DNA of 64,000 nt from Flavobacteriales bacterium (GTDB lineage: Bacteria > Bacteroidota > Bacteroidia > CAIKAF01): the NCBI GenBank assembly GCA_025451235.1, contig JANWKT010000001.1, positions 1 through 64,000 on the forward strand, given 5' to 3'. The notes under the pieces were generated by a model. That model ran no database searches. It was not told where the DNA came from and worked only from the letters and a program-made list of their open reading frames with translations. Position 1 is the first letter of the stretch; every line of letters begins with the position of its first letter. A program made the position numbers and the translations under genes. Shown here in pieces: positions 20,860-39,901 of the stretch.

Positions 20860-20886
20860 GAACAGAAAGCTTTCGGCTTTCTGTTC
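20860..20886 (-). terminator. Terminator after the PorV/PorQ operon
   Basis: Perfect 11-bp stem GAACAGAAAGC / GCTTTCTGTTC with loop TTTCG (plus-strand sequence). On the minus strand it follows the PorV/PorQ stop by about 50 bases and is followed by ATGTTTTTAA. A TACATTTG -7 box at 20892-20899 on the same strand may start the greA transcript within or next to this hairpin. Confidence 0.75.
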
Positions 20887-20934: not shown

Positions 20935-22047
20935 TTAGATTGTGAACCTGGCACCAAAACTATGCACCCCTCCAAAATTGTAAGTAGCTCTAAATGAGTA
21001 ATCAAAACCAATTTTGGTAGTTCCACCTTTTTTAAACGGAGCTTCGAAGGTAATACCTCCGGTAGGTCCGAAAAATGCGTTTAACATGGTTGGGGTAGCT
21101 CCTTCTCTGTTTCCAAATATCCCTTCCTCAAATGCATATCCACCGCGAACCATCAGCATATTTTTGAAGTTATACTGAAGTCCTAAAGTCCATTGGTCAT
21201 AAGTAAATGAATGGGTGGCAAAGTTGAAAGCAAAATCCAAAGAATGAGATTTATTGATACGATACATATATCCAACGCCGATATTCATCAATGCAGGCAT
21301 TTCATATTCCGCTGATCTTTGTTCAACTGTTACCAATGATCCGAAGATGGGAGAAGTAAATTGTGTAGAAAGTCCATCACCATTTGCTCTCATTCTTGGT
21401 CCGATGTTTTTTAATGTGATCCCAAAGAATAAATTATCCTGGTCATCATCTGGTAGCCCTTCGATCTTGCGTTTGCCGATCTTGGTTTTATACATGATCC
21501 CTGCATCCACCGCAAAACCTGTAGAGTTTACGTTTGACAATCCTTGAGTGATGATCCTAACGGTAATACCACCGGATATTTTTTTAGAGAAAGCTCTTGA
21601 ATATGATAAAGCAATGTTCAAATTACTTACTTGATAGGTATTACCCGTACCTTCAGGTTGGTCGACGGTAGTTTCCGAAATTTTACCTGAATTAAGTGCC
21701 ATTACACTTAAACCGATCACACCTCTTTGTGCCCCTAGATTTTGTGCAAATCCGAAACTTTCAATGTTGATACCGGTTCCTGCCAACCACATGGAATGCG
21801 AAAATATAAGTTCTGTCTTTTTAGTAAAAGACAAACCAGCCACATTCATGAACTGTGATTCTAACCCACGGCAAAAAGCAGTATTTGCATTTGCCCAGCC
21901 TGAACTACGAGCCCAAGGGTTAATCAAAAGATCGGTGCTGCCCGCAGAACCAGCCCTATCACCGTTTCCAGCGTAGGTGAATTGAAAGGCAGCTGACATA
22001 AGTACAATAGTCGCCAATAATTTTTTTCCTGTCTTCATCTTTGCCAT
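20935..22047 (-). CDS. PorV/PorQ-family outer-membrane protein
   Basis: 370 residues with signal peptide (MKTGKKLLATIVLMSAAFQFTYA, preceded by MAK). The body is an outer-membrane beta-barrel of the PorV/PorQ (UPF0164) type: early NPWARSSGWANANTAFCRGLE and NVAGLSFTKKTELIFSHSMW, later FGITLKNIGPRM, ending FGARFTI. PorV carries T9SS cargo from the SprA channel to the attachment complex; PorQ is related. This gene closes a minus-strand run of TonB-dependent receptor and giant surface protein, 34 bases after the latter, so it may be a dedicated partner for those proteins. Whether it replaces the housekeeping PorV cannot be decided here. Confidence 0.85.
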   Translation of the reverse strand: MAKMKTGKKLLATIVLMSAAFQFTYAGNGDRAGSAGSTDLLINPWARSSGWANANTAFCRGLESQFMNVAGLSFTKKTELIFSHSMWLAGTGINIESFGFAQNLGAQRGVIGLSVMALNSGKISETTVDQPEGTGNTYQVSNLNIALSYSRAFSKKISGGITVRIITQGLSNVNSTGFAVDAGIMYKTKIGKRKIEGLPDDDQDNLFFGITLKNIGPRMRANGDGLSTQFTSPIFGSLVTVEQRSAEYEMPALMNIGVGYMYRINKSHSLDFAFNFATHSFTYDQWTLGLQYNFKNMLMVRGGYAFEEGIFGNREGATPTMLNAFFGPTGGITFEAPFKKGGTTKIGFDYSFRATYNFGGVHSFGARFTI

Positions 22048-22081
22048 ATTATTCTTTAATTAATAATAAATACATTCAACA

Positions 22082-25000
22082 TTAGAAATTATCAAGTTGT
22101 AATGGTCTTAATACTCCATACCATTTCAATATTTTCTCACCAATACCTGGGGCATTTACATGTATAATGTATAAGCCGGTTGATATAGGAATATTTTTAT
22201 AGTTCTTTAGATCCCATGCTACACTGGTAGTGGTATTGTCATCCTTTTCAAAGGTCCTGATAAGCGTACCATTTAATGTATAGATAGAAATTGTACATCT
22301 ATCCGGCAGGTTTACAATTTTTACCCTGTTATCCAATGCTGAGGTTTCATACTCACTTGCTGAATAATAAGGGTTAGGAACCACCTGAATAATATCCAAT
22401 GCACTAGAGGCGGTTGGTGTATTATTGATAATCGATTCCAATCCATCGAATGTAAATTCATACATCGGATTATTAGCATTTACCGGAGCTGACTCAGGGT
22501 TCACTGAAGAATAATCTTTCGAATATGATTTCTGAACTCTTAATCTTATCCTCAGATCACTAGCTAACCAGTTTTTGCCGGTAACGCTGAATGGAATTCC
22601 AGCCCAGATACAATTTCTCCAAACCTGACGAGCTCTAGCCAATGAAACTCCGCTGATAGGTTCAAAATTATTCGTTGTATCCGTTAAGTTCTTAATGATC
22701 TTTAATCCATAATCATAATTAGGGAATATATTGTAAGCACCTTCTGCAGGGTTTGATTCGAATACATAGATATAATGTTTACCCGCAAATAAATAATCAC
22801 CCAGGTCAGAAACATATCCTTCCGGATTTCCTGTTAAAGGATCAGAATTAGAAGGATTGAATAACATATCCCTTCCATTCTCACCAGCCAGATAAGAATC
22901 TTCACCGAAAGCGATATTCAATCTTTCTCCTGTTTCCACATTGATGGCATATCCAGGGAACCAACCCATTCCATAAGCCGAAATATAATTCGGGTCAGAA
23001 GGATTTGAACTTGCCGTAGTAGCAAAGTTTTTATTTCCATCCTGGTCAACAGAGAATGCAAAACGCAGGTCTAAGTTTTTAGGTGGAGTTGAATTTGGGA
23101 AACCTGGATCTACATTCGCATCATTGGGTAAACTTCCAATCGGATTGTAAGTTTCGAATACAGGACATCTGCTCCATTTTGATTTATCAGGAGTGATAAC
23201 AATATCAATAGATCCTATATATGAATTTGCGGTATTAGGAATAATTTTCCCTGAAGCATTGATCTGGCTAGAATAACCAACGTTATGTCCTGGGAACAAC
23301 TGAGTGGCATTCGGGTCTTGTTTATAGTTACTTACACTGGAAGTAAGAATATAAGGTACAATACCGCCACCACCATAGAAGGATGTTCCGCTTACAAATT
23401 TGCCCTGTGGGTCAAAATAAATTTTCTGAGCTTGAGAGCAAACTACCGTTTCCATATAGTTACTATTCCAATACGTAGTATTATCATCAGCAGTGCTACC
23501 TGCTCTTACCCAATTCAATGGAGAGTCACCATCTATATCAGGGAAGAATCCGAGGTAAACATTTTCTGGGTCATCGAATTCGATGCTCGAAAATAAAAGT
23601 CCATTCCCCGGGGTTGATACTTCGGTACCATTGATGTCAATAGACCCTGGATCAGTATAGAAGGTGGCAATATTACAACCGGCTGTATTCACGATCCATG
23701 ATGGACCAGGATTTTGAACCTGGTGAACATCGATAGAGAATCCAAGGAATTCGTTGGTTCTTTCGTCATAAATGATTTGTTCGTACGCCTGAGCCAAATT
23801 GCTTTCTGATCTGGCAACCGTATCAGAACCCGAAATAGTATCCGGATCCAACAAAACCCATGTGGCGGTGCTTTGAATCGCTTTTACAGCTTGGTTGGTG
23901 GTATCCATTACTTTTAAAATATATCTCTTGCCTTTAATCAACAAGGGATCAATAATTTTTACTTTGATAGGTCCTAATCCATTTTCATAAGTAAGAATTT
24001 TTGTTCTATGGTTTGGATCGGCTAAAATGGCATCTTCAGTTGCTTTGGTCAATTCCAGCACATTTCCTCCATTTCCTCTTCCTTCCAGTCTGGTAATTTG
24101 TGGTCCAAATCCATACAATGAATTCAGAATGGTTCCTCCATTTTCTACGGAAGGAATATGCGGTGTAGCTTTATAAACTTTAATGTTTCTTCTACCCAGG
24201 AAGAATGGTTCTTTTTGCCCATCCAATAAGGTAGGATCATTTGGATCATAGGTTTTATAATTGTTATATCCATAAGCCAATGCCATATAATAATAGTCTT
24301 TATGGTTCACCAGTGTTTTGCTGGTATTGGTTACCGACTCATTGAACTGATCCTGATCAATTTTAAACGAGTGTCGGATACCCTGGTTCTCACCATCTAC
24401 TTTTACCACCGGTACTGAATATCCCAATCCATCATCATACTCAAAGTTGACGATTCTGCTGATCGGATTTCCGTTGGCATCAAAGTTTCGAAGATCACAT
24501 TGGGCCACCAATCGACCGAATTCAGAACCATCCGAACCAAATATATCAGTAGCGGTTACGGTTTTATCTTTTACCTGATAGATCAAATATCCTTCGAAAC
24601 GGATCATTCTATCATAATGCGCCGTATCGATCTGAGTACCTATCTGAATGGTAGTAGATACCTGGACACTTTGGTTATTTAAATAACCATATAAGCTATC
24701 CACCAAGGTCATCCCTACATAAATGTAGAACATGCTATCTTCTGGCAGCGCTTGTTGATTTTGATACAAATAATAAGTAGTTCCTGAAACATCGGTTGAA
24801 TCGAACTGAGGTACCCAAATGGTGGTATCCGTTGTAACAGGTGAAGAAGATAAAACATATTCAGGAATGAAGTAGTTTAATTCTTCATATTGATTCAAGT
24901 AGTTATTTGAAATGGATTTATTGGTCAAATACATCACTAATTCCTGGTCTAATTCCTGGATATTTAAATCTGGAGCATCCGGACCATTCAATACTTTAAA

Positions 25001-26743
25001 ACAGTTTTCGAAAAGTGATTGGGCTTTGATGTCGGCTGCCAATACTTTCAATACAGATTCGTAGGAGGCCCCTGTTGAAGATCGTGCCCAAACCACCCCG
25101 GTTGTAATATCGTTTACAGCACCCGGCTTGAGGGTAAATGGTCCAGCGGACTGAACGAAACGACGGTCACCCGCCTGGTTAGGGTTGGGAGATCCTCCGG
25201 TATTCGTTTCCGACCAACTGAAAGAGGCGGCTATACCTTTGGTTCCCCAGTTCCATGGATCAGAATCGCCTGGGAACATGAAATCTGCTTTAGGAGAAGC
25301 AGCACAAGATCCGGAAGGATAACCATTGCAACCAAAGATCATTCTGGAATTGTCTCTCCAATATCCTCTCAGGTAGTTATAATATTCAGGACCTGTACTA
25401 GGGTCACCGGTAACAGCACCAGAGTTATTATAATAAACGAATCTTCTCATACCGAAACGTTCGTTGTCAGCAATTGTATCATCAAATCCAACTCCGTTGA
25501 TACCGAAAGTTGCATTTGTTCTAAGCGTATCCTTGGTATCGCTTAATAATAAGTTCATCGCAGCCAATGCCTCGGGAGTTGGGTTATTTGGATCCCAGCT
25601 TTTATCCCAGAAATCCGCAATACCGTTGTTATCCATATAAGGACCTAAGAAGAAGTCGATACCAATGGCTGGTGGATTTGCACCATAACCATTCTGACCA
25701 GAATATGGATTATCAAAATCATCTGCATTGTACATAAATCCAAATCCACGTTCAACATCACATCCGGTATAATCATCAATCGCTCCACCGATATCAGCAT
25801 CTGTATTGATACCAAAATAACATTGTTCCAATGTAGTGGTTCCGCGATTGATCAACTGATAATTATAAAAGGTCATGTTGTTGATCTCATCATTGGTATT
25901 AAACCCAAAACCTTGAGCTCTGATCTCCATACCAATTGCATTACCAGCAGATTCACCATGGATATTTCCTTTATCGTTAAATACCCACCATAAAGTAAAG
26001 TCACCATACAGAAGGGCACTTCTATTTGTTCTGCAATCAATGGTATTATCCAAATCATAAAATGGATAATCACCATCTGAATAATCATATACTCCATCTC
26101 CTGCCACATCATAGAAAGGAGCGAGAATATTCTGCATCACTAAATGCTGTCCGTTCGATTGAAGGATTGGATTTCCTGGCCATTTTTTAATGGACTCAGG
26201 TACTTGATAATTGTCACAAGATGGGTCGGTAGATGTACCATCGCCGCATAACCTGAACAATTCAACATCCTGACGGCTAACACTCCAAAGCTGATCATAC
26301 AGGTCACAAGTCTCTGCATCAATGGCAGCACTGCCTAATGTATCCAATGGACCTGTCCAATAGTCAACCCCATTTGTACGGTAACGTTGAGCAGCCACTT
26401 TTAAGGTTTGTGTCTGAGCCTCACGTCCACCAATCCAAAGGTTTCCTACAAATAAGGAGTGGGTATTACTTCCTTTAGGAATTTCATAACGGGCATTCGA
26501 GATCAAATCCCACCACATATCACCTCCGGAGTGAATCAAAGCACGAACATTGTTTACATTCAACTCAGCAGAAGTTGAAGGTGGTAAACATCCGGCTGAA
26601 GTAGATTTTTCTTCAGCACTTTGCTTCCCGGCATTGGTAGACTTGGTTGGGTCGAACACATAGGCATTCACTATGGCGGTTGAACCAAATAAAAGCCCTA
26701 ATGTTAACACTGCAAAAATTCTTTTCATATTCCTCGATTTCAT
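22082..26743 (-). CDS. Giant surface protein, copy B, with type A-like sorting domain
   Basis: 1553 residues. Signal peptide MKRIFAVLTLGLLFGSTAIVNA (ATG 26743 adds MKSRN; ATG 26728 is an alternative). The mature start has SAGCLPPSTSAELNVNNV and RALIHSGGDMWWDL, then NLWIGGREAQTQTLKVAAQR. An acidic metal-binding-like block reads NTDADIGGAIDDYTGCDVER, followed by PPAIGIDFFLGPY. The C-terminal ~100 residues (VVPNPYYSASEYE, ISIYTLNGTLIRTF, STGLYIIHV) resemble a type A sorting/FlgD-like Ig domain, but the tail KWYGVLRPLQLDNF runs past the usual end. It is a paralogue of the gene at 31485-36119 with long identical stretches. It lies 23 bases after a TonB-dependent receptor. Function unknown; a surface partner of that receptor is inferred. 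Confidence 0.8.
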   Translation of the reverse strand: MKSRNMKRIFAVLTLGLLFGSTAIVNAYVFDPTKSTNAGKQSAEEKSTSAGCLPPSTSAELNVNNVRALIHSGGDMWWDLISNARYEIPKGSNTHSLFVGNLWIGGREAQTQTLKVAAQRYRTNGVDYWTGPLDTLGSAAIDAETCDLYDQLWSVSRQDVELFRLCGDGTSTDPSCDNYQVPESIKKWPGNPILQSNGQHLVMQNILAPFYDVAGDGVYDYSDGDYPFYDLDNTIDCRTNRSALLYGDFTLWWVFNDKGNIHGESAGNAIGMEIRAQGFGFNTNDEINNMTFYNYQLINRGTTTLEQCYFGINTDADIGGAIDDYTGCDVERGFGFMYNADDFDNPYSGQNGYGANPPAIGIDFFLGPYMDNNGIADFWDKSWDPNNPTPEALAAMNLLLSDTKDTLRTNATFGINGVGFDDTIADNERFGMRRFVYYNNSGAVTGDPSTGPEYYNYLRGYWRDNSRMIFGCNGYPSGSCAASPKADFMFPGDSDPWNWGTKGIAASFSWSETNTGGSPNPNQAGDRRFVQSAGPFTLKPGAVNDITTGVVWARSSTGASYESVLKVLAADIKAQSLFENCFKVLNGPDAPDLNIQELDQELVMYLTNKSISNNYLNQYEELNYFIPEYVLSSSPVTTDTTIWVPQFDSTDVSGTTYYLYQNQQALPEDSMFYIYVGMTLVDSLYGYLNNQSVQVSTTIQIGTQIDTAHYDRMIRFEGYLIYQVKDKTVTATDIFGSDGSEFGRLVAQCDLRNFDANGNPISRIVNFEYDDGLGYSVPVVKVDGENQGIRHSFKIDQDQFNESVTNTSKTLVNHKDYYYMALAYGYNNYKTYDPNDPTLLDGQKEPFFLGRRNIKVYKATPHIPSVENGGTILNSLYGFGPQITRLEGRGNGGNVLELTKATEDAILADPNHRTKILTYENGLGPIKVKIIDPLLIKGKRYILKVMDTTNQAVKAIQSTATWVLLDPDTISGSDTVARSESNLAQAYEQIIYDERTNEFLGFSIDVHQVQNPGPSWIVNTAGCNIATFYTDPGSIDINGTEVSTPGNGLLFSSIEFDDPENVYLGFFPDIDGDSPLNWVRAGSTADDNTTYWNSNYMETVVCSQAQKIYFDPQGKFVSGTSFYGGGGIVPYILTSSVSNYKQDPNATQLFPGHNVGYSSQINASGKIIPNTANSYIGSIDIVITPDKSKWSRCPVFETYNPIGSLPNDANVDPGFPNSTPPKNLDLRFAFSVDQDGNKNFATTASSNPSDPNYISAYGMGWFPGYAINVETGERLNIAFGEDSYLAGENGRDMLFNPSNSDPLTGNPEGYVSDLGDYLFAGKHYIYVFESNPAEGAYNIFPNYDYGLKIIKNLTDTTNNFEPISGVSLARARQVWRNCIWAGIPFSVTGKNWLASDLRIRLRVQKSYSKDYSSVNPESAPVNANNPMYEFTFDGLESIINNTPTASSALDIIQVVPNPYYSASEYETSALDNRVKIVNLPDRCTISIYTLNGTLIRTFEKDDNTTTSVAWDLKNYKNIPISTGLYIIHVNAPGIGEKILKWYGVLRPLQLDNF

Positions 26744-26766
26744 ATTTTAAACAAAAACTTTTTCAA

Positions 26767-29700
26767 TTAAAAACTTAAAATAGCTCCAAACCTTACTCTT
26801 CTTGGCATACTGTAGTTATAAGGATCGTTTACCTTCATATTATAGTAGTTCATATAAGATGTAGGATCCACCTGGCTTAAGATCTGAGCTTCGTAATTTG
26901 GAGCAGTTAAATAACCATCATCCGTTGGACTACCTGTAGCGGCATACACTCCAACAATATTCTGAACATTGAATAGGTTTTGAATATTTATATACAATTG
27001 TAGAGTGGCTCTTTTACGACCAGTATTGTTTTCTTTTTTCTTGCCAAAGAATAAAGTAATGTCCTTGTTAATGCTGAGGTCATTGTAAAATTCAAATGGA
27101 AGGCGAGCTCCATTTAATGAACCTAATAATGATCCATTGGAAGATCCAGTAATTAATTGGGTGGGTGTAGGGATCACCTGACGTGAATATGGAACACCAG
27201 AGTTTCCGTAAAGGGTCATACTTACGCCAAGGTTTCTAAAGATGGCCTCAAAGAATTTTCCACGAGGTCCCATATATTTAGTACCGGTAGAAGGATCTTT
27301 ATCTTTTGTTTCACCAAAATTAAATACTCCAAATAACTTGAACTGGTGACGGGTATCATATCCTAATGGAATCGTTGAACGCAAGTTAGGTTGACCAGAG
27401 TTGATCAGGTTCAATTGAGAGAAACTGTTCGATCCAGTACCGTCGGCAAATTGTAAAGTATAGTTAGCGGTTAAACTAATATTGCCACTTTGAGGTGCAA
27501 GAATGATCTCAGCCGAAAGACCTTTTACCGTAGCAAAATCTATATTGCTCCAGTTGGTATACGTTCTTGGATAAGCTTCCTGCACTTTCACTACAGCGAT
27601 CATATCACGCAATTCTTTATAAAAGGCACGAATTTTAAATAAGATAGACTCCGTTAAGATCTGACGGAAGCTCAATGAAAACTCAGTGGTTCTTTCAGGT
27701 CTTAAATTTGGGTTATTAAACCTTTTGTTACCTGTATTATAAGATGCATTATCCCAGAATAAATAATCCAAAGGATTCATTTGGGCCAGGTTCTGGTTAC
27801 CATCAAACAAGGTAGGACGCTGAGTAAGCACATCATAATACGCAGAGAACAATGTTTTTTCGGAGATAGGGAATGAGAAAGAAATCCTTGGCATTACATT
27901 TACTTGAGGTACATAATCGGTAAATGCGTTGAAAAGTCCAGCTCCAACGGTTTTGCTTCCACCTTCTGAAACAGATGAAGTAGCAGGATCCGTTAAATAA
28001 GGTTGAACGCGACCGGATGAGTTTCTCAATAAAGTAGGGTCGTTGATCACTTCTCCATCAGCATTGTACCAGGTATCACCATCTCTGAATCCCAAAGGAG
28101 CACCAGAGGTTGGATTGTTCTCATCCACTACATATACTACCCAATCATCTTCTACATTTCCGGGCACTACATACGAGCTTGGGAAAAGATTCCAATCAAC
28201 ATCTCCAGCTTTTCTGGTATCGTATAATGAATATTGGTCCTTCAATACTTTTTGGTTAGCGTCAAAACGATCGATCCTCACTCCTACGCTAAATACAATA
28301 TCTTTAAAAGAGAATTTATCCTGTATATAACCTGCCATATAAATAGGCTGGAATGCAGAAGTAGGTCTGGTATTAAATCCGTTGGCATCTTTTTCAAGGA
28401 AGAAATCTTCAAAACTGCTTCTTCCTTCTACCCTGTTACCATATGCATCATAACCAATATGAGTAATCAAGTTGTTACCGCTGTTGTATAGCTCATCAGT
28501 AGCGAACATGTTCAGGTCAAAGAAATCAGGATCTAACCCATCAATATTGATATAGTCTAATCCATTTACACTCAATCCCAATTTTTGTCTCAGGTTATAA
28601 TCAAATAAAGATTGACCTAAACCAAATCCAGGACGAAGTGGATCGGATACATATAATGGATTATAATTAATGGTATCCTGATAAGACATAGATGAATTAT
28701 ACACTGGCATGCCGTTAGCAAGATCCAGCGTACCCAAATGAGAACCGGTTAACTGCCTTGCAATGGTCCATAAACCCACCGGGGCAATGGTATAGGAAGC
28801 ATCCGTTCTTTGTTCAAATTCAAAACCTAATCCAATATCATGGTCTCCAATGGTGGCGGTTCCGGTAAAATTGATCCTGAACTGGTTGTTATCAAAATTG
28901 GAATATCCATTGTAAGCAAAGCCTGGGCTTCTATACATATCATAAACATTATCTGGTCCATAACCATTGATAATACCACCTGTATTAATAATGCTGGTTA
29001 ACTGGTCGTGGAATCCTTCGGATTGAGGATATAATGAATAGAATTGTGAAGTAACGGCTGCAATTTGGTCGTTGATCGACGAAGGTGTAAATGCAACGGA
29101 GGTATCCTGGTAACCTGTAAATAAATAACCAGACATATCTAATGAGTCATCATATCCATATGCATAAGTAGGTGCACGGTATACATCAAACTTACCGACA
29201 TAACCATAATTAAAGAACCTGTTTTCATGCTGTACGTCCTCAGTTTTTGTAAACCCTTTCAGATAATCTACCTGTAAACTGATCATGGCATTTTTTAATC
29301 CTTTGTATTTTCCTTTATCGTCTTTTTTACCTTCGAAGTATTGGGTGATCCGACCATAAATATTCCAGGTAAAGGCTTGAGTTCTTCCATTGCGATCCCA
29401 GTTAAACATGGAGTTATTATAATCCCATGCTTTTTGTTGTCTGGCGTTTACGTATCCACCTATGGAAATAAAAGTATTTTTTGCTGGGTTGATATCAATT
29501 TTAGCGTTTCCATTGATATACTGCCTATCTGCATTCAATCTATAAGAGCTTTTTTCAAAATCGTACACTCCCAAATACTCTGCATTCAAACGGGTACCAC
29601 TTTGTCCGGCAGGAGGCAGACGTAAAGGATCATTAATAATTCTATTGCGGGCATCATCGGTAGCTCTGTACCATCCACCAAAACCCGGGGTTGGATCAAG

Positions 29701-30549: not shown

Positions 30550-30639
30550 TATTTATTATATTTTTAATATAGGTCTGTAAATTTACAAGGTCGTAAAAGT
30601 ATATATTTAAGTCTATTTAACAAATGTTTAATTCACAAA

Positions 30640-31173
30640 TCAGTATTCCGGTCTTTTTAATATTTCGGCTGTAATTATTGCCTTTCTCCAGTCAATATCA
30701 GCCCATTCACTTACCTGTTCTTCAACCACTTCCTCTTTAATATCATCAAACCCTACTCCGTGAACATGGTGGTCCGAAGTTTCGTCATAATCCACCACTT
30801 CCTCGGTATAGTTAAGTTCTGTATCGTAGCTATAATATTCCTTCTCTGCTTTTTCTAACGTTGAGGTATCCTCATAGGAAGTATACTTCTCCGGCTCTTT
30901 ATCGGTAAAAACCTTTTGTTCTTCCACCTTTGGAGGGTAGAATTTCTGGGGTTTTTGCTCGCCTAAGAGGCTTTGCAATATATCCTCCAGGGATTTTGGC
31001 TGAGTTGTTTGCGGTTTGTTATAGGTGGTTGTGGTAGGCTTGTTGTAATTGGTAAGAGGCTTTTTTTGGCCCGAACTTCCTGTGTTAGTGGGCTTTTTCT
31101 TCTTTTTAAGCACAGAGCTGATGATAGCTGCGCCTAAAATCAATGCCCAAATAATCAGGGTGGTTTTGTTCAT
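30640..31173 (-). CDS. Small membrane-anchored acidic protein of unknown function
   Basis: 177 residues. One N-terminal membrane helix (TTLIIWALILGAAIISSVL) followed by KKKKK, which keeps the rest in the cytoplasm by the positive-inside rule. The middle is Thr/Gln/Lys-rich low complexity, and the C-terminal half is strongly acidic (YTEEVVDYDE, EEVVEEQVSEW) ending DWRKAIITAEILKRPEY. No family recognised for sure, though the C-terminal DWRKAIIxAEILxRPxY pattern looks conserved by composition. It has its own strong promoter and sits between the two receptor/surface-protein pairs. Confidence 0.75.
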   Translation of the reverse strand: MNKTTLIIWALILGAAIISSVLKKKKKPTNTGSSGQKKPLTNYNKPTTTTYNKPQTTQPKSLEDILQSLLGEQKPQKFYPPKVEEQKVFTDKEPEKYTSYEDTSTLEKAEKEYYSYDTELNYTEEVVDYDETSDHHVHGVGFDDIKEEVVEEQVSEWADIDWRKAIITAEILKRPEY

Positions 31174-31192
31174 GGTCTATTTATTACAATTA

Positions 31193-31223
31193 CAAATGTA
31201 ACGGCCTAAATATAATACGCCAA
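31193..31223 (-). promoter_or_regulatory. Complete Bacteroidota promoter for the small membrane protein and downstream pair
   Basis: On the minus strand: TTG (31223-31221), exactly 20 bp, then TACATTTG (31200-31193), a full -33/-7 match. Transcription would start near 31186, about 13 bases before the ATG at 31173. It probably also serves copy B of the receptor pair and the PorV/PorQ gene. Confidence 0.75.
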
Positions 31224-31346
31224 TTACAAAAAAAGGCCTTTGTCATTAAAAAAGGGATAAAAAAGGCTATATATTATTTTTAATTATCTCATTTTCAATA
31301 TTTTGATTGGTTAGGTGCCGTTAAATTCTGTTAATGCTAAAATAAA

Positions 31347-31442
31347 TTCAGGGTGTCAGGCCTCCAAGAGTTTCCCGATAGCTTCCTGATGGCTATTTCG
31401 AGGGAGGGAGGAATACTTAACCCCACCAGCTTGAACCCTGAA
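31347..31442. repeat. Imperfect long inverted repeat in the 311-bp gap
   Basis: The 311-bp gap 31174-31484 holds the promoter above, an AT-rich stretch, and this region bounded by TTCAGGGT (31347-31354) and ACCCTGAA (31435-31442), with an inner hairpin ATAGC/GCTAT around a 9-base loop near 31380-31395. It lies just after the stop of the upstream giant protein on the minus strand and could be a 3'-end structure or processed repeat. No T run was seen, so terminator is not claimed. Confidence 0.35.
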
Positions 31443-31484
31443 GGTTTGAGAGTTTGAGGTTTGAAGTTAATCTCAAACATAGCA

Positions 31485-34400
31485 TTATAAATTATCCAAC
31501 TGCATAGGCCTCATTACTCCATACCATTTCAAAATCTTTTCTCCAATTCCTTCCGCTTTTACATGAATAATATATAATCCGGTTGATATCGGGATGTTTT
31601 TAAAATTCCTTAAATCCCAAGCTACACTTGTGGATGTATTATCCCTTTTAATGAACTTTCTGATCAAGGTACCATTGATGGTATAAATAGAAATATCACA
31701 TTCATCCGGCAGGTTCACAATTTTTACCCGGTTATCAAGAGCGGAGGTTTCATATTCACTGGCCGAATAATAAGGATTCGGAACTACCTGTATAATATCC
31801 AATGCGCTGGTAGCCGTTGGATTGTTTTGAGTAACCGTTTCCATACCTTCAAACGAAAACTCGTACATGGGATTATTTGCATTCACCGGACTGGTTTGTG
31901 CATTGAAGGCCGAATAATCTTTTTGATAAGGTTTCTGCACCCTCAATTTTATTCTTGCTTCACCACCCAACCACACTTTATCGGTAACATTGAACGGAAC
32001 ACCCGACCATATGCAATTTCTCCAGATATTTCTTGCCCTTTGTGTTCCCACACCTGAGATGGGATAATCATTGTTGGTATCATCTGTTAATTGCTCCATC
32101 AGCTCTGCACCCGCATCGTAATTCGGGAATGCTTCGCTGCCACCCCCCGCCGGATTCGATTCAAAAACATAGATATAATGTTTCCCTGCAAAGAAATAAT
32201 CGCCAAACTGCTCAGAATAATAACCTTGATTATTCCCTGAAGGTGGATCTGATTTGGATGGATTGAATAACATATCTCTTCCGTTTTCGGTAAACAAATA
32301 CGAATCTTCACCAAACGCAATATTTAATCGTTCTCCAGTTTCCACATTGATGGCATATCCAGGGAACCAACCCATTCCATAAGGTGAGATATAGTTAGCC
32401 GAATCAGGATGATTGCTTGCCGATGTTGTATAACTTTTATTTCCTTCTTTATCTACTGAAAATGAAAAACGCAGGTCCATACTTTCAGGATAGGTTGTTA
32501 CGGGAAATCCCGGATCCACATGTGCTTCATCCGGATCATTGATTAAATTATGGGTTTCAAAAACCGGGCATCTGGACCATTTGGATTTATCAGGAGTAAT
32601 CACAATCTCCACAGATCCCATATAGCTCATGTAGGTTCTGTTACCGATCCTTCCTGCTGCATTCACAATGGTAGTATTACCTATTCCGTGTCCGTAAAGT
32701 CCGTTATATGAATTCAAACTGGAGGTAAGCAAGTAAGGTACCATGGTACCACCACCATAAAATGACTCTCCATTCAAAAACTTCCCTTGCGGATCAAAAA
32801 ATACTTTTAGAGGAGGATTCGGAGTTGGTTGTGATTGCTCAAAATGGTTGCTGTTCCAGAAAGTAATATCCGCATCATCTGTGCTTCCAGCTCTTATACA
32901 ATTCAGTGGATTATCTCCATCCTGATCTGAGAAAAATCCGATATAGTAATTTTCCGGGTCTTCAAATTCAATATGGGTATATAATAATCCATTGCCTGGC
33001 GTCGACCGTTCTGTTCCGTTCACCTCCACTATACCCGGTTCAATATATTGAGTATTCAAAATGCCTGCACTATAGGTCCAGGTTGGACCAGGATTCAACA
33101 CCTGGTGAATGTCAATTGAAAATCCAAGGAATTCATTGGTCCTTCTGTCATAAATGATCTGCTCGTAAGGTTGTGACAGATCACTTTCTGATATGGCCAC
33201 CGTATCATCTCCTCCGGGAGCTACCGTAGGATCGAGCAGAATCCAGGTGGCTGTATTCTGCACAGTTTTTACGGTTGCCAAGGCTGTATCCAATATCTTC
33301 AAAACATATTTTTTCCCTTGAATCGACAATGGATCAATGATCTTTACTTTAATAGGGCCCAATCCGTTTTCATACGTAGGAGTTTCCACTCTATGATCAG
33401 GAGATGCCAGGATCGCATCCTCTGATTCTTTGGTAAGTTCTAATATATTTCCGCCATTCCCTCTTCCCTCAAGCCTGGTAATTTGTGGCCCAAATCCGTA
33501 TAACGAGTTGAGGATAGATCCGCCACTTTCCGGAGCCGGAATATGAGGAGTTCCTTTATACACCCTGATATTGTTCCTTCCAAGGAAGAAAGGTTCCTTT
33601 TGACCATCCAAAGCAGTTGGATCATTGGGATCATAATTCTTATAGTTGTTATATCCGTAAGCCAATGCTATATAATAATAATCTTTATGGTTCACCAGAG
33701 TTTTGCTCGTATTGGTAAAAGATTCGTTGAACTGGTCCTGTGTGATCTTAAATGAATGTTTGATCCCCTGGTTTTCGCCATCCACCTTTACAATCGGAAC
33801 TGAATATCCTAATTCATCATCATATTGAAAGTTGACGATCTTACCAATGGGATTACCACTGGCGTCCACATTGGAAACATCACATTGAGCTACCAGTCTT
33901 CCAAACTCCGATCCGGCAGGCCCAAAAATGTCCGTAGCCGTTACGGTTTTATCCTTTACCTGGTAGATCATGTAACCTTCAAACCTAATATACTGATCAA
34001 AAAAGTTGGTATCCAACACGCTTGACTGGACCGTAGTTATTACTTGCGTACTTTGATTAGCTAAATAGCCGAATAAACTATCCACAGGGATCATTCCTGC
34101 ATACAATATAAAAAGACTGTCGTAAGGATTTGGTTGAGGCTCATCATATAAATAATAAGCCACTCCCCCAACATTAGTAGAATCGTAATGAGGCACCCAG
34201 ATAAGTGTATCATGAGTTGCCGAAGGAGTTAATTCATATTTTGGAATAAAATAATTTTTCTCGGTGTACCGGTTCAGGTAATTGTTAGAAGTGGGCCTGT
34301 TGGTCAAATACATCACCAATTCCTGATCCATTTCCTGAATATTTAGATCCGGAGCATCAGGTCCATCCAATACTTTGAAGCAGTTCTCAAAAAGTGCCTG

Positions 34401-36119
34401 CGCTTTGATATCAGCCGATAAAACTTTTAAAACAGATTCATAAGAGTCGCCAGAAGATGACCTGGCCCAGACCACTCCTGTAGTAATATCATTCACAGCT
34501 CCAGGTTTTAAAGTAAATGGTCCAGCCGATTGCACAAACCTTCTGTCATCTGCGGGGTTCACATTCCCTGCTCCATTTGTATTTGTTTCCGACCAATCGA
34601 AACCAGGATTTTGTCCTTTGGTACCCCAACGCCATTTATCTGAGCCTCCCGGGAACATAAAATCCGCATATTGTGTGCTTCCCGAAAACTGTCCGATAGG
34701 TTTGCCATTTCCACCATAGATCATCCTGCTTCCACCACCTGATTGGGTCCAATACCCCCTTAATAAATTATAATAATCAGGACCATTTACTGGATCCTCT
34801 CCATTGTTGTAATAAACAAATCTTCTCATACCAAACCTCTCGTTGTCTGCAATCGTATCATCAAAACCAACTCCATTGATCCCATAAGCAATACTTATCC
34901 TGGTGGTATCCTTCAAGCCAGCAATGGCGGTAGTTGCCACTCCCGGAGGGTTGTTATTTGGATTCCAAGATCTATCCCAGAAGTCAGCTACCCCATTGTT
35001 GTCGAGATAAGGTCCCAGAAAAAAATCAATCCCGATCGCTGGAGGATTTTCGCCATATCCCAAAGCACCTTGATAAGGCCCGTCAAAATTATCTGCATTG
35101 TACATAAACCCAAAACCCCGTTCTACATCACAGCCTGTATAATCATCTTTGGCTCCCCCAATATCTGCATCTGTGTTCACCCCAAAATAGCATTGCTCAA
35201 GGGTGGTAGTTCCTCTGTTGATCAACTGGTAATTATAAAAGGTCATGTTGTTGATCTCGTCATTCGTGCTAAATCCGAAGGCCTGCGCCCTTACTTCCAT
35301 TCCAATGGCATTGCCCCCTGATTCTCCGTGAATATTTCCTTTGTCATTAAAGACCCACCACAAAGTAAAGTCACCATATAATAAGGCACTCCTATTATTT
35401 CTACAATCAATGCTATTGTCAAGATCATAGTATGGATAATCACAATCTTCGTATTCATAGATCCCGTCACCGTCATTATCAAAAAAAGGGGCCAATATAT
35501 GTTGCATGATCATATGTTGCCCATTACTTTGCGGAATAGGATTGCCTGGCCAGTTCTTGATTGACTCCGGTATCTGATATCCTTCGCAGGAAGGATCATC
35601 TGAACTTCCACAACCACATAATTTAAACTGTTCCACTTCCTGTCTCGTTATTTTCCAGAGCCTGTCATATAGATCACAAGTTTCTGCATCAATGGAGGCG
35701 GTGCCCAGTGTATCCAGTGGGCCTGTCCAAAAATCGACTCCAGTAGTGCGATAACGTTGAGCAGCCACTTTTAAGGTTTGCGTTTGTGCTTCGGTTCCAC
35801 CGATCCAAAGATTCCCTACATACAATGAATGTCTTCCGCTGTTCTTAGGAATTTCATACCTCGCATTTTGGATCAGGTCCCACCACATATCTCCACCCGA
35901 ATGGATCAATGCACGAACATTGTTCACATTCAGCTCGGCTGAAGTTGAAGGGGGCAAACAACCGGCTGAAGTTGATTTTTCTTCACCTGTGGTCTTGGTA
36001 GCATTCCCTGATTTGAGTGGATCAAAAACATGGGCTCTTAATTCAATACTCATTGGGAGTATTAAAACCATCGAAATGATTATAGCAAATGTAGTTTTCA
36101 TAATACTTGGTTTAACCAT
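31485..36119 (-). CDS. Giant surface protein, copy A, paralogue of 22082-26743
   Basis: 1544 residues. Signal peptide MKTTFAIIISMVLILPMSIELRA; ATG 36119 adds six residues and lies two bases after the upstream stop, while ATG 36101 gives a spacing like copy B. It shares with copy B the blocks SAGCLPPSTSAELNVNNV, RALIHSGGDMWWDL, NTDADIGGAKDDYTGCDVER, NERFGMRRFVYYNN, RRFVQSAGPFTLKPGAVNDI and the C-terminal VVPNPYYSASEYETSALDNR to KWYGVMRPMQLDNL. Differences cluster in mid-protein (the DTLIWVPHYDST region). T9SS export is inferred from the C-terminal Ig-like domain and the PorV context. Function unknown. Confidence 0.8.
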   Translation of the reverse strand: MVKPSIMKTTFAIIISMVLILPMSIELRAHVFDPLKSGNATKTTGEEKSTSAGCLPPSTSAELNVNNVRALIHSGGDMWWDLIQNARYEIPKNSGRHSLYVGNLWIGGTEAQTQTLKVAAQRYRTTGVDFWTGPLDTLGTASIDAETCDLYDRLWKITRQEVEQFKLCGCGSSDDPSCEGYQIPESIKNWPGNPIPQSNGQHMIMQHILAPFFDNDGDGIYEYEDCDYPYYDLDNSIDCRNNRSALLYGDFTLWWVFNDKGNIHGESGGNAIGMEVRAQAFGFSTNDEINNMTFYNYQLINRGTTTLEQCYFGVNTDADIGGAKDDYTGCDVERGFGFMYNADNFDGPYQGALGYGENPPAIGIDFFLGPYLDNNGVADFWDRSWNPNNNPPGVATTAIAGLKDTTRISIAYGINGVGFDDTIADNERFGMRRFVYYNNGEDPVNGPDYYNLLRGYWTQSGGGSRMIYGGNGKPIGQFSGSTQYADFMFPGGSDKWRWGTKGQNPGFDWSETNTNGAGNVNPADDRRFVQSAGPFTLKPGAVNDITTGVVWARSSSGDSYESVLKVLSADIKAQALFENCFKVLDGPDAPDLNIQEMDQELVMYLTNRPTSNNYLNRYTEKNYFIPKYELTPSATHDTLIWVPHYDSTNVGGVAYYLYDEPQPNPYDSLFILYAGMIPVDSLFGYLANQSTQVITTVQSSVLDTNFFDQYIRFEGYMIYQVKDKTVTATDIFGPAGSEFGRLVAQCDVSNVDASGNPIGKIVNFQYDDELGYSVPIVKVDGENQGIKHSFKITQDQFNESFTNTSKTLVNHKDYYYIALAYGYNNYKNYDPNDPTALDGQKEPFFLGRNNIRVYKGTPHIPAPESGGSILNSLYGFGPQITRLEGRGNGGNILELTKESEDAILASPDHRVETPTYENGLGPIKVKIIDPLSIQGKKYVLKILDTALATVKTVQNTATWILLDPTVAPGGDDTVAISESDLSQPYEQIIYDRRTNEFLGFSIDIHQVLNPGPTWTYSAGILNTQYIEPGIVEVNGTERSTPGNGLLYTHIEFEDPENYYIGFFSDQDGDNPLNCIRAGSTDDADITFWNSNHFEQSQPTPNPPLKVFFDPQGKFLNGESFYGGGTMVPYLLTSSLNSYNGLYGHGIGNTTIVNAAGRIGNRTYMSYMGSVEIVITPDKSKWSRCPVFETHNLINDPDEAHVDPGFPVTTYPESMDLRFSFSVDKEGNKSYTTSASNHPDSANYISPYGMGWFPGYAINVETGERLNIAFGEDSYLFTENGRDMLFNPSKSDPPSGNNQGYYSEQFGDYFFAGKHYIYVFESNPAGGGSEAFPNYDAGAELMEQLTDDTNNDYPISGVGTQRARNIWRNCIWSGVPFNVTDKVWLGGEARIKLRVQKPYQKDYSAFNAQTSPVNANNPMYEFSFEGMETVTQNNPTATSALDIIQVVPNPYYSASEYETSALDNRVKIVNLPDECDISIYTINGTLIRKFIKRDNTSTSVAWDLRNFKNIPISTGLYIIHVKAEGIGEKILKWYGVMRPMQLDNL

Positions 36120-36121
36120 TA

Positions 36122-39100
36122 TTAAAAATTAAGCATCACACCAAATTTCACTCTTCGGGGCATGCTATAGTTATAAGGATTATCTACTTTCATTGAATAA
36201 TAATTTGCGTAAGATTGAGGATCAACCTGACTGGCAATCTGGGATTGGTAATTCGGAGAGGTTAAATAACCATCATCTGTAGGACTGCCGGTAGCACTGT
36301 ATACATTTACAATATTCTGAATATTGAATAGATTTTGAACATTTACATATAGTTGCAATACTGCCAATTTACTGCCTCCTCCTTTTTTCTTAAAAAACAG
36401 GTTAATGTTCTTAGTTACACTCATATCACTGTAAAATTCAAACGGAAGTCTGGCTCCGTTCAATGAGCCCAGCAATGATCCATTAGATGAGCCTGTGATC
36501 AATTGGGTAGGTGTTGGAATGACTTGTCGGGAATAAGGTACTCCAGAGTTTCCTACCATACTTATGCTTAAGCTCACATTTCTAAAAATCGATTCAAAGA
36601 ATTTTCCCTTTGGTCCCAAATATTTTGTTCTGTCATTTCGATCGAGTTTCTTGGTGTCACCAAAATTAAATACTGTGAATAGTTTGAATTGATGCCTTGA
36701 ATCATATGCCAACGGAATCGTAGATCTTAGATTTGGTGAACCGGAATTGATTAAATTTAATTGTGAAAAGCTACTTGAACCCGTACCATCAGCAAACTGT
36801 AAAGCATAAGAAGCATTCAGTTTGAGATTTTCACCCATAGGTTTTACAGTAACTTCGAATGCCAATCCTTTGGAGGTAGCAAAATCAATATTACTCCAGG
36901 TTGTATAACTCCTGGGGTAAGCCTCCTGAACTTTTACCGTAGCTATCATATCCCTCATTTCCCTATAAAAAGCATTCACTTTTATTAGAATCATTCTGGA
37001 TATAACTTGCGCAAAACTGATCGTAAAGTCAGTAGTTCTTTCCGGTCTTAAATTGGGATTGTTGAAAATCGTTCCTGAGGAATTATAGCTGGTATTATCC
37101 CAGAACAAATAATCCATTGGATTCATTTGCGACAAATTTCTATTCCCATTATATATGGATGGGCGCTGAGTAAGTACATCATAACTGGCTTCAAACATGG
37201 TATTCTCTCCCAGAGGAAAATAAAAAGAAATCCTTGGCATTACATTTACCTGTGGAACATAATCCGTAAATGCGTTGAATAATCCTGGTCCTGGATTTCT
37301 AACATCCACGGTTGGATCAACTAAAAATGGCTGAACACGACCCGAGGAGTTTCTCAAAACAGTTGGATCGGAGATCACTTCTCCAGATGCATTGTACCAG
37401 GTTTCTCCATCTCTATATCCTAAAATCGCCGTTGGGCTATTTACGTCATTCACGTATACCACCCAATCATCTTCGGCATTCCCTGGATGATTGATAGGTT
37501 GTCCGTTAAGATCCGACACGTCCCCCACCTTCTTTGTATCATACAAAGAATAGGGGTCCTTTAAAACTTTTTGATTCGCATCATATCGGTCAATTCTTAG
37601 CCCGATATTAAATACAATGTCCTTAAATGAAAATCTATCCTGAATATATCCGCCCAAATAATTAGGCTGAAAGGAGGAAACAGGCCGGGTTAAATTTCCA
37701 TACGCATCCCTGGAGGTAAAAAAGTCCTCAAGACTTGAGTTGGATGTAGTTCGATTACCGTATACATCAAATCCGGAATTGGCCACAAAACTATTTCCAT
37801 TGTTATACAATTCATCCGCACTGAACATATTGATATTTAAAAAATTGGGATCTAAGGAGTCTACATTTAAATAATTTAAACTATTTGCCTCTAACCCCAG
37901 CTTCCTTCTAAGATTATAATCAAAGAATGTCTGACCTAATCCGAATCCCGGACGATTTGGGTCAGCTACATATAGTGCACCGTAATTGATAGTATCCTGG
38001 TAAATTCCCATTTGATTGTATACTGCATGAGGGTCTGAAGTGTCTAAGGTCCCTAAATGCGAATTCGTTAAAAGTCTTGCTGAGGTCCACAGCCCAACTG
38101 GATTTAAATTATAAAATGCATCATTTCTTTGTTCAAATTCAATTCCCAATCCAATATCATGATTTCCTACAGTTGCAGAGCTGGATAGTACTATTCTGAA
38201 TTGGTTATTGTCTGCTATCTGATATCCATTATAAGGAGTTCCAGGACTATTGTACATATCATACACCGGTCGTGGAGAAGTACCATTAATTACACCTCCA
38301 TTATTGGTGATACTGGATAGTTGATCATAATGACCCTGGGCAGAAGGGTACAGGTTATAAAGTTGCGAGGTGATCGCTGCAATCTGACCATTAACGGTCG
38401 ATGGAGTAAATGTGACCATGGTATCCTGGTAGCCGCTGAATAAATATCCTGTTTTATTCGCCTTAGCATCGTAGCCATAAGTATATGTGGGGGTTCTGTG
38501 AATATCAAACCTACCCACATATCCATAGTTAAAAAAATTATCCTGGTGTCTTACGTCTTCCGTTTTTGAATAGCCTTTTAGATAATCTATCTGCAAACTC
38601 ACCATACCGCTTTTTATCCCTTTGTACTTTCCTTTAGAATCCGTTTTCCCTTGAAAGTACTGGACAAATCTTCCAAAAACATTTCCGGTAACAGATTGGT
38701 TCCTTCCGTTGTTCTCCCAATTAAACATTGAATTGTTTCGGTCCCAGAGCATATTTTCAGTAGCATTCAAATAACCTCCCACAGAAATGAATGTATTTTT
38801 TGCCGGGGCAAAGTCTAGTTTTGCATTCACATTGAAATATTGAGAAGCTGCATTCATCCTAAAAGGAGATTTAGTAAAATCGTCCTCAGATAAATACTCA
38901 GCATTGTATCTGGTGCCACTTTGTCCAGCCGGAGGTAAGCGGAGTGGATCATTCACCACTCTATTCAGTGCATCATCTGTTGCTCTGTACCAACCACCAT
39001 ATCCTGGACGTGCATCTTTATCATATCCTCCTTCGAATGATACCACATATCCGAGGATTGGCTTACCCACAATGGTGGTCTTTTTGCCGGAGCCGGTACC

Positions 39101-39901
39101 TTTCTTTTCTTTTCGTTGAAGCAACGGCCCTCCTATGGTTCCACTGAAATAATAATGTCCGTAATCATCCAGGAATTTTGAAGTTCTTGCCTCTACAGCG
39201 CCAAACATCTCATTTGAAATGTTTCTCATGGTTACTTCAATCACTCCACCCACTACATCACCATACTTAGCTGGAATCCCAGTAACATATACATCAATGG
39301 ATTCCACTCCGCCTCTGGGTAATATGGCCAATCCATTTCTGATCTTTACACCATTGATAAAAATAGTCGGTGCCTGACGGGCACCTGCGAAACTTCCTAA
39401 GTCACCGTCACGTGTATATACTCTTGGCACCATGGTTACCATGGCTAGATAATTAACCGCCGGGAAGTCCATCATAGCTTTCCTATCAATAGGAAAACAG
39501 GTAATCGGTTTTCCTGGATCGAGTCTAAAAATATTCTTTGCGCTAACTGTAATGGTAGAATCTATTCTACCACTCACCACCTGCATTTCTGGATCCAAAC
39601 GAGTGATCTGACCTGTAGTGATAACTATATCATCTATTTTAAACACCGCATAGCCGTGTAAATAAAACTGAACGGAATATTTTCCTGTTTGAATTCCCTG
39701 GATCCAAAAATTGCCTTGAGCATCTGTTTGAATTTCATTTACAGGTTTGTCGTTTTGCAATACCTGCACCATAACAAATTCCAAAGGTAATTGGGTGGAC
39801 TGATCAAGCACAATCCCTTTCAACTCTCCAGTTCCCTGTGAAAACAAGATGGGCTGGATACCCAGTAATAGAAATAGAATCCATAGTACTTTTCTCATCA
39901 T
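36122..39901 (-). CDS. TonB-dependent receptor with CarboxypepD-reg-like domain, copy A
   Basis: 1259 residues. Signal peptide MMRKVLWILFLLLGIQPILFSQ, then GELKGIVLDQSTQLPLEFV (CarboxypepD-reg-like), plug segments APTIFINGVKIRNG and IPAKYGDVVGGVIEVTMRN, and a large barrel ending RRVKFGVMLNF. It is a clear paralogue of the receptor at 26767-30549: the plug, YSRQVIPTPTQLITG, and the C-terminal NPYNYSMPRRV are shared. The SSNSSLEDFF and PSIYNGNRNLSQMNPMDYLF regions show where the copies diverged. It is two bases upstream of the giant protein, so the two are translated together. Substrate unknown. Confidence 0.9.
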   Translation of the reverse strand: MMRKVLWILFLLLGIQPILFSQGTGELKGIVLDQSTQLPLEFVMVQVLQNDKPVNEIQTDAQGNFWIQGIQTGKYSVQFYLHGYAVFKIDDIVITTGQITRLDPEMQVVSGRIDSTITVSAKNIFRLDPGKPITCFPIDRKAMMDFPAVNYLAMVTMVPRVYTRDGDLGSFAGARQAPTIFINGVKIRNGLAILPRGGVESIDVYVTGIPAKYGDVVGGVIEVTMRNISNEMFGAVEARTSKFLDDYGHYYFSGTIGGPLLQRKEKKGTGSGKKTTIVGKPILGYVVSFEGGYDKDARPGYGGWYRATDDALNRVVNDPLRLPPAGQSGTRYNAEYLSEDDFTKSPFRMNAASQYFNVNAKLDFAPAKNTFISVGGYLNATENMLWDRNNSMFNWENNGRNQSVTGNVFGRFVQYFQGKTDSKGKYKGIKSGMVSLQIDYLKGYSKTEDVRHQDNFFNYGYVGRFDIHRTPTYTYGYDAKANKTGYLFSGYQDTMVTFTPSTVNGQIAAITSQLYNLYPSAQGHYDQLSSITNNGGVINGTSPRPVYDMYNSPGTPYNGYQIADNNQFRIVLSSSATVGNHDIGLGIEFEQRNDAFYNLNPVGLWTSARLLTNSHLGTLDTSDPHAVYNQMGIYQDTINYGALYVADPNRPGFGLGQTFFDYNLRRKLGLEANSLNYLNVDSLDPNFLNINMFSADELYNNGNSFVANSGFDVYGNRTTSNSSLEDFFTSRDAYGNLTRPVSSFQPNYLGGYIQDRFSFKDIVFNIGLRIDRYDANQKVLKDPYSLYDTKKVGDVSDLNGQPINHPGNAEDDWVVYVNDVNSPTAILGYRDGETWYNASGEVISDPTVLRNSSGRVQPFLVDPTVDVRNPGPGLFNAFTDYVPQVNVMPRISFYFPLGENTMFEASYDVLTQRPSIYNGNRNLSQMNPMDYLFWDNTSYNSSGTIFNNPNLRPERTTDFTISFAQVISRMILIKVNAFYREMRDMIATVKVQEAYPRSYTTWSNIDFATSKGLAFEVTVKPMGENLKLNASYALQFADGTGSSSFSQLNLINSGSPNLRSTIPLAYDSRHQFKLFTVFNFGDTKKLDRNDRTKYLGPKGKFFESIFRNVSLSISMVGNSGVPYSRQVIPTPTQLITGSSNGSLLGSLNGARLPFEFYSDMSVTKNINLFFKKKGGGSKLAVLQLYVNVQNLFNIQNIVNVYSATGSPTDDGYLTSPNYQSQIASQVDPQSYANYYSMKVDNPYNYSMPRRVKFGVMLNF

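What the first reader, a model, noticed from the sequence alone, without database searches (positions are those of the whole stretch)
20935..39901. Duplicated receptor + giant surface protein unit ending in a PorV/PorQ gene
Two copies of the same two-gene unit (TonB-dependent receptor of 1259/1260 residues, then a 1544/1553-residue surface protein) lie head to tail, with a small membrane protein between and a PorV/PorQ gene at the end. Layout recalls SusC/SusD, but the partner is not SusD: it carries a W/GG-rich N-terminal block (RALIHSGGDMWWDL) and an acidic NTDADIGG..DDYTGCD block, with a sorting-like Ig domain at the C terminus. Long stretches are identical between copies while mid-regions differ, as expected for duplication and change of ligand. 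This looks like an undescribed uptake or surface-display system using T9SS.
Basis: partly seen in the sequence, partly recalled or inferred. Interest (0 to 1): 0.65.

Follow-up and report, generated by a model that had tools for sequence, protein, structure and literature searches.

The report
Conserved receptor, giant protein, PorV trio
The window holds a three-gene outer-membrane unit (a TonB-type import receptor, a giant surface protein that looks exported by the type IX secretion system, and a PorV-like barrel) that recurs across Bacteroidota but that I found no paper describing; in this genome the receptor-giant pair has been duplicated.

Summary
REC (TonB-dependent receptor), GIANT (about 1550 aa) and PORV (PorV/PorQ family) are intact, same-strand and almost touching. 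REC_A/B are 62% identical and GIANT_A/B 72%; trees make each pair sisters, so the pair duplicated in this lineage. REC has no SusC signature and GIANT is not SusD. GIANT's N-half is confidently predicted as the beta-supersandwich of GH15/65/94/116 enzymes, without their catalytic barrel. Its C-terminal Ig domain matches T9SS signal domains, best PorZ. REC lies directly upstream of GIANT in 99 of 112 loci of the class; PORV is next in 102 of 113. In 20 of 20 loci from other classes the trio is intact although the flanking greA/HIT genes are gone. Every GIANT-positive genome has sprA, which also lies in this window. Solo giants exist, mostly extra copies. No paper describing the trio was found. 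Most likely it is an outer-membrane uptake complex: GIANT exported by T9SS, held by its own PorV-family barrel, serving as the extracellular part of REC. The complex, ligand and import are inferred. The claimed ligand-change signature is not supported: A/B divergence in GIANT mirrors family-wide conservation.

The parts
36122..39901 (-). REC_A: TonB-dependent receptor with CarboxypepD_reg N-terminal extension, plug and barrel (extra copy)
   Evidence: Family: plug PF07715 in 16/22 and barrel PF00593 in 10/22 members; plug match to colicin I receptor, E 4e-13
31485..36119 (-). GIANT_A: giant surface protein, sister of GIANT_B
   Evidence: tree support 100/100
31193..31223 (-). Bacteroidota-type promoter match TTG-N20-TACATTTG, about 20 bp before the SMALL start codon
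   Evidence: the pattern occurs about 0.3 times per kb on this strand, so suggestive only
30640..31173 (-). SMALL: 177 aa, N-terminal hydrophobic (probable transmembrane) segment, acidic linker, C-terminal motif of the type 'WRKAIITAEILKRPEY'
   Evidence: homologues directly upstream of REC in 38 of 81 loci examined; weak DUF4834 match
26767..30549 (-). REC_B: TonB-dependent receptor of the core unit
22082..26743 (-). GIANT_B: giant surface protein of the core unit, Sec-type signal peptide, no lipobox (by eye)
24992..26590 (-). GIANT_B residues 52-584: beta-supersandwich domain (includes the GGDMWWDL and DADxGxxxDDYxGCD motifs)
   Evidence: AlphaFold pLDDT 87, pTM 0.86; Z 18.3 to 9ju0, 17.6 to 1ug9, 17.3 to 1lf6
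22085..22423 (-). GIANT_B residues 1441-1553: T9SS-type C-terminal Ig domain with conserved end KWFGxxRPxDLxxF
   Evidence: PorZ 5m11 E 1.2e-5; RemZ CTD 8gl8_D prob 1.00; Z 10.9
20935..22047 (-). PORV: PorV/PorQ-family outer-membrane barrel
   Evidence: NF033709 135 bits, cut-off 90; family profile hits solved PorV 6h3i, E 6e-17
20860..20886 (-). Terminator-like hairpin (11 bp stem, T tail) between PORV and greA
   Evidence: 1 found, 1.0 expected in shuffles, so weak
20330..20803 (-). greA: conserved downstream neighbour in this class, not part of the trio elsewhere
19926..20330 (-). HIT-family protein: conserved downstream neighbour in this class, not part of the trio elsewhere

Best explanation
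REC, GIANT and PORV are subunits of one outer-membrane uptake complex. GIANT crosses the inner membrane by Sec and the outer membrane through the SprA translocon, guided by its C-terminal Ig domain. Its own PorV-family barrel (PORV) takes it from the translocon and keeps it on the surface through an uncleaved C-terminal domain, as PorQ/PorV are thought to hold PorZ/PorU. GIANT's large body, with a supersandwich domain related to the N-terminal domain of sugar-active enzymes, sits over or beside REC and captures a substrate. TonB energy acting on REC then imports it. In this genome the REC-GIANT pair is doubled and both giants share one PORV. Shown: sequence families, predicted folds, gene order, co-occurrence with sprA, and duplication history. 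Inferred: the physical complex, export route, non-cleavage of the C-terminal domain, and import. The ligand is unknown; a carbohydrate or glycoconjugate is only a guess from the fold.
For: Linkage: REC directly upstream of GIANT in 99/112 loci and PORV next in 102/113 within the class. All three are intact in 20/20 loci of other classes, although greA/HIT are gone. Further trios occur as paralogues, two in a row in L220. REC is a TonB-dependent receptor, with a TonB-box-like stretch between the extension and the plug in many members. The GIANT C-terminal domain resembles T9SS signal domains, best the non-cleaved ones of PorZ and PorU, and has an invariant Lys in the last strand (K1540). PORV is a PorV homologue but not the canonical PorV, which probably lies elsewhere (C8, 372 bits). 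All 53 GIANT-positive of 60 relatives and all 184 of 395 phylum genomes carry sprA, and no sprA-negative genome has GIANT. N-half supersandwich. Literature: non-cleaved CTDs of PorZ/PorU (PMC11285876); cognate shuttles that stay with their cargo for Type B domains (PMC12618676).
Against: No complex was modelled or measured. The C-terminal domain is below the curated cut-off of TIGR04183 (19.1 and 16.1 against 23 bits). About 11 giants lack a receptor next door, so a giant can exist without its own REC. The sprA correlation follows phylogeny (most sprA-negative genomes listed are one family), and one search counts some matches to the C-terminal domain only. The TonB-box-like motif is degenerate in both window copies. 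A supersandwich fold does not by itself show ligand type.
Confidence: 0.55

Rival explanations
1. The trio is a housekeeping outer-membrane assembly or secretion accessory (like the extracellular canopy of the Bacteroidota BAM complex or the T9SS attachment complex); REC is a structural barrel rather than an importer.
For: Within the class there is usually one core copy at one fixed place beside greA and HIT, with about 50% identity in the N-half across orders. Canopy-type extracellular BAM subunits exist in the phylum (PMC12611786, PMC12578637). The C-terminal domain is closest to PorZ, an attachment-complex part.
Against: BamG is a FadL-family barrel and BamH a lipoprotein; GIANT has no lipobox and PORV meets no BamG cut-off. 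Whole families with T9SS lack the trio, so it is not essential for T9SS. Several paralogous trios per genome in other classes suit uptake better.
Confidence: 0.18
2. GIANT is mainly a surface adhesin or S-layer-like coat anchored by PORV; REC beside it imports something unrelated or only senses.
For: GIANT has lineage-specific solo duplicates in G033, G037, G038 and G039 without a second REC. Supersandwich-only tandem arrays of about 560 aa exist in G307. T9SS surface anchoring is common.
Against: REC directly upstream is kept across classes when other neighbours change; in the window REC duplicated together with GIANT.
Confidence: 0.15
3. GIANT is an extracellular carbohydrate-active enzyme that processes a substrate for REC.
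For: Supersandwich fold shared with GH15/65/94/116.
Against: In those enzymes this domain is the non-catalytic N-terminal part. The catalytic (alpha/alpha)6 barrel is absent: both halves are predicted beta-rich with few helices. No Pfam enzyme family matches.
Confidence: 0.06
4. Gene order is only an inherited neighbourhood without functional coupling.
For: Within the class the greA and HIT neighbours are equally conserved.
Against: In 20/20 loci from other classes the trio persists without greA/HIT, and paralogous trios keep the same order.
Confidence: 0.06

Closest known systems
SusC/SusD-type uptake systems (including RagAB, BtuBG)
   Same: TonB-dependent receptor with CarboxypepD_reg extension, paired and nearly abutting with a gene for a large surface protein; paralogous pairs in one genome
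   Different: No SusC/RagA family signature reported for REC (0 of 22) and no SusD match to GIANT. The partner has no lipobox, carries a T9SS-type C-terminal domain and comes with its own PorV-family gene
T9SS Type B cargo with cognate PorP/SprF shuttle (SprB/SprF, PMC12618676)
   Same: Cargo gene followed by the gene of an outer-membrane shuttle barrel; shuttle thought to fix final location
   Different: Here the domain is PorZ/Type A-like, not Type B, and the shuttle is PorV/PorQ family, not PorP/SprF; a TonB-dependent receptor precedes them
T9SS attachment complex PorU-PorV and PorZ-PorQ
   Same: T9SS-exported proteins with non-cleaved Ig-type C-terminal domains held by PorV/PorQ-family barrels; the GIANT domain is closest to PorZ
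   Different: GIANT is not a protease or PorZ; it has a conserved tail KWFGxxRPxDLxxF beyond the last strand, is linked to a TonB-dependent receptor, and is not universal in T9SS genomes
Bacteroidota BAM canopy (BamG-BamH, PMC12611786, PMC12578637)
   Same: FadL-like barrel plus large extracellular partner over a bigger barrel
   Different: BamH is a lipoprotein and BamG has its own family model; neither applies here, and no TonB-dependent receptor is a BAM subunit

Membership tests
TonB-dependent receptors | Plug domain and TonB-type beta-barrel | tested here: met
   Plug 16/22, barrel 10/22 family members; plug region hits 2hdf at 4e-13. The two window copies themselves show only the N-terminal extension above Pfam cut-offs
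SusC/SusD | SusC/RagA subfamily signature in the receptor | tested here: not met
   No SusC/RagA model among NCBIfam matches of 22 REC proteins
SusC/SusD | SusD-family lipoprotein partner | tested here: not met
   No SusD Pfam or NCBIfam match to GIANT; Sec signal without lipobox cysteine (by eye)
T9SS cargo | C-terminal Ig-type signal domain (TIGR04183 or PF18962) | tested here: inconclusive
   Below curated cut-offs by sequence, but the predicted fold matches PorZ, PorU, RemZ and NucA domains
T9SS cargo | T9SS in the same genome | tested here: met
   sprA in this genome and partly in this window; 53/53 and 184/184 GIANT-positive genomes
T9SS cargo | sprA-dependent surface export | not testable with these tools
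   Needs a mutant
PorV/PorQ family | NF033709 above cut-off | tested here: met
   135.3 bits against 90
Canonical PorV or PorQ equivalog | NF033710 or NF033711 above cut-off | tested here: not met
   74.7 of 250 and 51.2 of 220 bits; a stronger PorV-family match lies on contig C8
BAM subunits BamG/BamH | BamG model match / lipoprotein BamH | tested here: not met
   BamG model weakly matched by only 1 of 23 PORV proteins; GIANT has no lipobox
GH15/65/94/116 enzymes | Catalytic (alpha/alpha)6 barrel after the supersandwich | tested here: not met
   No such helical barrel in either predicted half

The most novel reading that the evidence does not exclude
A phylum-wide outer-membrane machine that joins two energy-driven systems: T9SS delivers a giant extracellular subunit that a dedicated PorV-family barrel never releases, and together they form the surface part of a TonB-driven importer. 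This would be a SusCD-like architecture that arose independently and a third kind of T9SS cargo/shuttle pairing.
Probability: 0.4. Interest if true: 0.8.

Novelty: new variant of a known kind. Interest (0 to 1): 0.62.

Why it matters
If right, the type IX secretion system supplies structural subunits of nutrient importers, not only enzymes and adhesins, and PorV-family barrels can be permanent partners of one cargo. The trio occurs in most families sampled near this genome within its class, and in several paralogues per genome in other classes, so it may underlie a substantial, unassigned part of Bacteroidota nutrition. The named relatives found are mostly uncultured, and many completely sequenced families of the same class lack it, which may be why it has been missed.

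Tried and rejected
BAM canopy idea (BamG/BamH): rejected on family models and lack of a lipobox. SusD relationship: no match. GH enzyme: catalytic barrel absent. Recent gene conversion between copies: synonymous sites near saturation. A/B variable regions as ligand-change signature: they follow family-wide conservation. PDB sequence search with GIANT_B alone: nothing. The middle of the C-half (about residues 700-1440) gave no fold match beyond the C-terminal domain; it was not folded alone, so its fold is untested. Literature searches for a receptor/T9SS/PorV unit found no description. Names of the genomes from other classes are hidden, so those classes cannot be named.

Full report
WHAT IS THERE. 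In transcription order: REC_A, GIANT_A, SMALL, REC_B, GIANT_B, PORV, then greA and a HIT-family gene. The two giants are 72% identical and the two receptors 62%. Third bases at conserved four-fold sites agree in only 36% and 32%, so the duplication is old. In trees the two giants (100/100) and the two receptors (SH-aLRT 100, quick tree) are sisters nested in their family. The pair therefore duplicated in this lineage; the relatives of the family whose loci were fetched show one copy at this place. The core copy is B: SMALL-REC-GIANT-PORV-greA-HIT is the arrangement seen elsewhere, with SMALL homologues detected upstream of REC in 38 of 81 loci. Copy A is an addition upstream. A Bacteroidota-type promoter match lies just before SMALL and a terminator-like hairpin lies between PORV and greA; both are weak evidence.

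FAMILIES. REC: CarboxypepD_reg extension in 22 of 22 members, plug in 16, barrel in 10; the plug matches the colicin I receptor at 4e-13. No SusC/RagA model appears among the matches. Between extension and plug, many members carry a TonB-box-like stretch (for example LKEVVVTEYKVPLIEKD), degenerate in both window copies. PORV: PorV/PorQ family (135 bits, cut-off 90) but below the PorV, PorQ and PorV2 equivalog cut-offs. A profile of its relatives hits solved PorV at 6e-17. A much stronger PorV-family match sits on contig C8 (372 bits) and is probably the canonical PorV. GIANT: no family above any cut-off.

FOLDS. GIANT_B 44-640 was predicted at pLDDT 87 and pTM 0.86, and 690-1553 at pLDDT 84 and pTM 0.85. 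The N-half is a beta-supersandwich like the N-terminal domain of GH15/65/94/116 enzymes (Z 18.3, 251 residues, 9ju0; Z 17.6, 1ug9), without their catalytic helical barrel. The C-terminal Ig domain matches PorZ (E 1.2e-5, Z 10.9), then PorU and the RemZ and NucA signal domains seen bound in the SprA-PorV translocon. Its end, KWFGxxRPxDLxxF, is conserved; K1540, in the last strand, is invariant in 35 sequences. This recalls the functionally important Lys of Type A domains (PMC10994853, PMC11285876); that the two lysines are structurally equivalent was not tested. According to PMC11285876 the PorZ and PorU domains are not cleaved.

NEIGHBOURHOOD. Within the class, REC is directly upstream in 99 of 112 giants with enough flank, and PORV is next in 102 of 113. 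The two locus sets overlap in a few records, so the counts are not fully independent. In 20 of 20 loci taken from other classes of the phylum the trio is intact while greA and HIT are absent. Those genomes carry several paralogues, including two trios in a row (L220) and trios with extra giants (L215). Linkage that survives a change of flanks argues for joint function. About 11 giants stand alone. Four are sisters of the core copy of the same genome, so they are extra copies rather than a different system. One genome has tandem arrays of about 560-aa supersandwich-only proteins (L213).

CO-OCCURRENCE WITH T9SS. GIANT was found in 53 of 60 relatives, all with sprA; the three relatives without sprA lack GIANT. 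In 395 phylum genomes, 184 have a match and all 184 have sprA (303 of 395 do). The test is confounded by phylogeny and includes weak matches to the C-terminal domain only. Many sprA-positive genomes lack the trio, so it is not needed for T9SS. sprA itself lies at 58585 and beyond in this window.

MECHANISM. The most economical reading is a T9SS-exported extracellular subunit, retained by a cognate PorV-family barrel and serving a TonB-dependent receptor. Shown: gene families, predicted folds, gene order, co-occurrence and duplication. Inferred: complex formation, uncleaved C-terminal domain, import, ligand. Sharing of one PORV by two giants, and solo giants without a second REC, fit a model in which giants vary on a shared barrel set, but do not prove it.

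AGAINST THE KNOWN. It works like SusCD in layout but is not a member: the receptor signature and the SusD partner were tested and not met. It resembles Type B cargo with PorP/SprF shuttles (PMC12618676), but with PorZ-like and PorV-like parts. It is not the BAM canopy (PMC12611786, PMC12578637). No paper describing the unit was found in the open-access library; subscription journals are largely not covered.

VERDICT. A new variant of a known kind, of clear interest because it is conserved across classes, undescribed as far as searched, and directly testable.

Noticed in passing
window 58576-63981 (-), continuing to about 65817 of contig C1: sprA, the T9SS translocon gene, lies about 19 kb from the trio and runs off the window end (SprA model 2316 bits).
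   Followed up: partly
window 52345-55278 (-): 977-aa protein with a CHU_C (Type B T9SS) C-terminal domain at 52408-52617 (60.6 bits), one of 48 CHU_C matches in this genome.
   Followed up: no
L082 8897-10310 (own genome, contig C13 about 42.9-44.1 kb): Three tandem small genes (154-175 aa) match only the C-terminal domain of GIANT at 35-44% identity: stand-alone sorting-type Ig domains of unknown use.
   Followed up: partly
L213 (genome G307, contig C96): Tandem array of 11 genes of about 480-570 aa that match only the supersandwich half of GIANT, without the C-terminal domain.
   Followed up: no
window 44726-45187 (+): 153-aa protein with a likely lipobox and several cysteines (Rieske-like by eye only); homologues lie near the trio in many loci.
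   Followed up: no
window 40910-42247 (-): 445-aa lysine-rich repeat protein (units like 'ADSDKKTNKKAKSSTATA'), upstream of REC_A.
   Followed up: no
window 1720-10191 (+): Very large ORF of 2823 aa, not analysed.
   Followed up: no
L105 15521-19630 and L157 15384 onward: A second giant after PORV (between PORV and greA in L105): a giant-only duplication that shares REC and PORV.
   Followed up: partly
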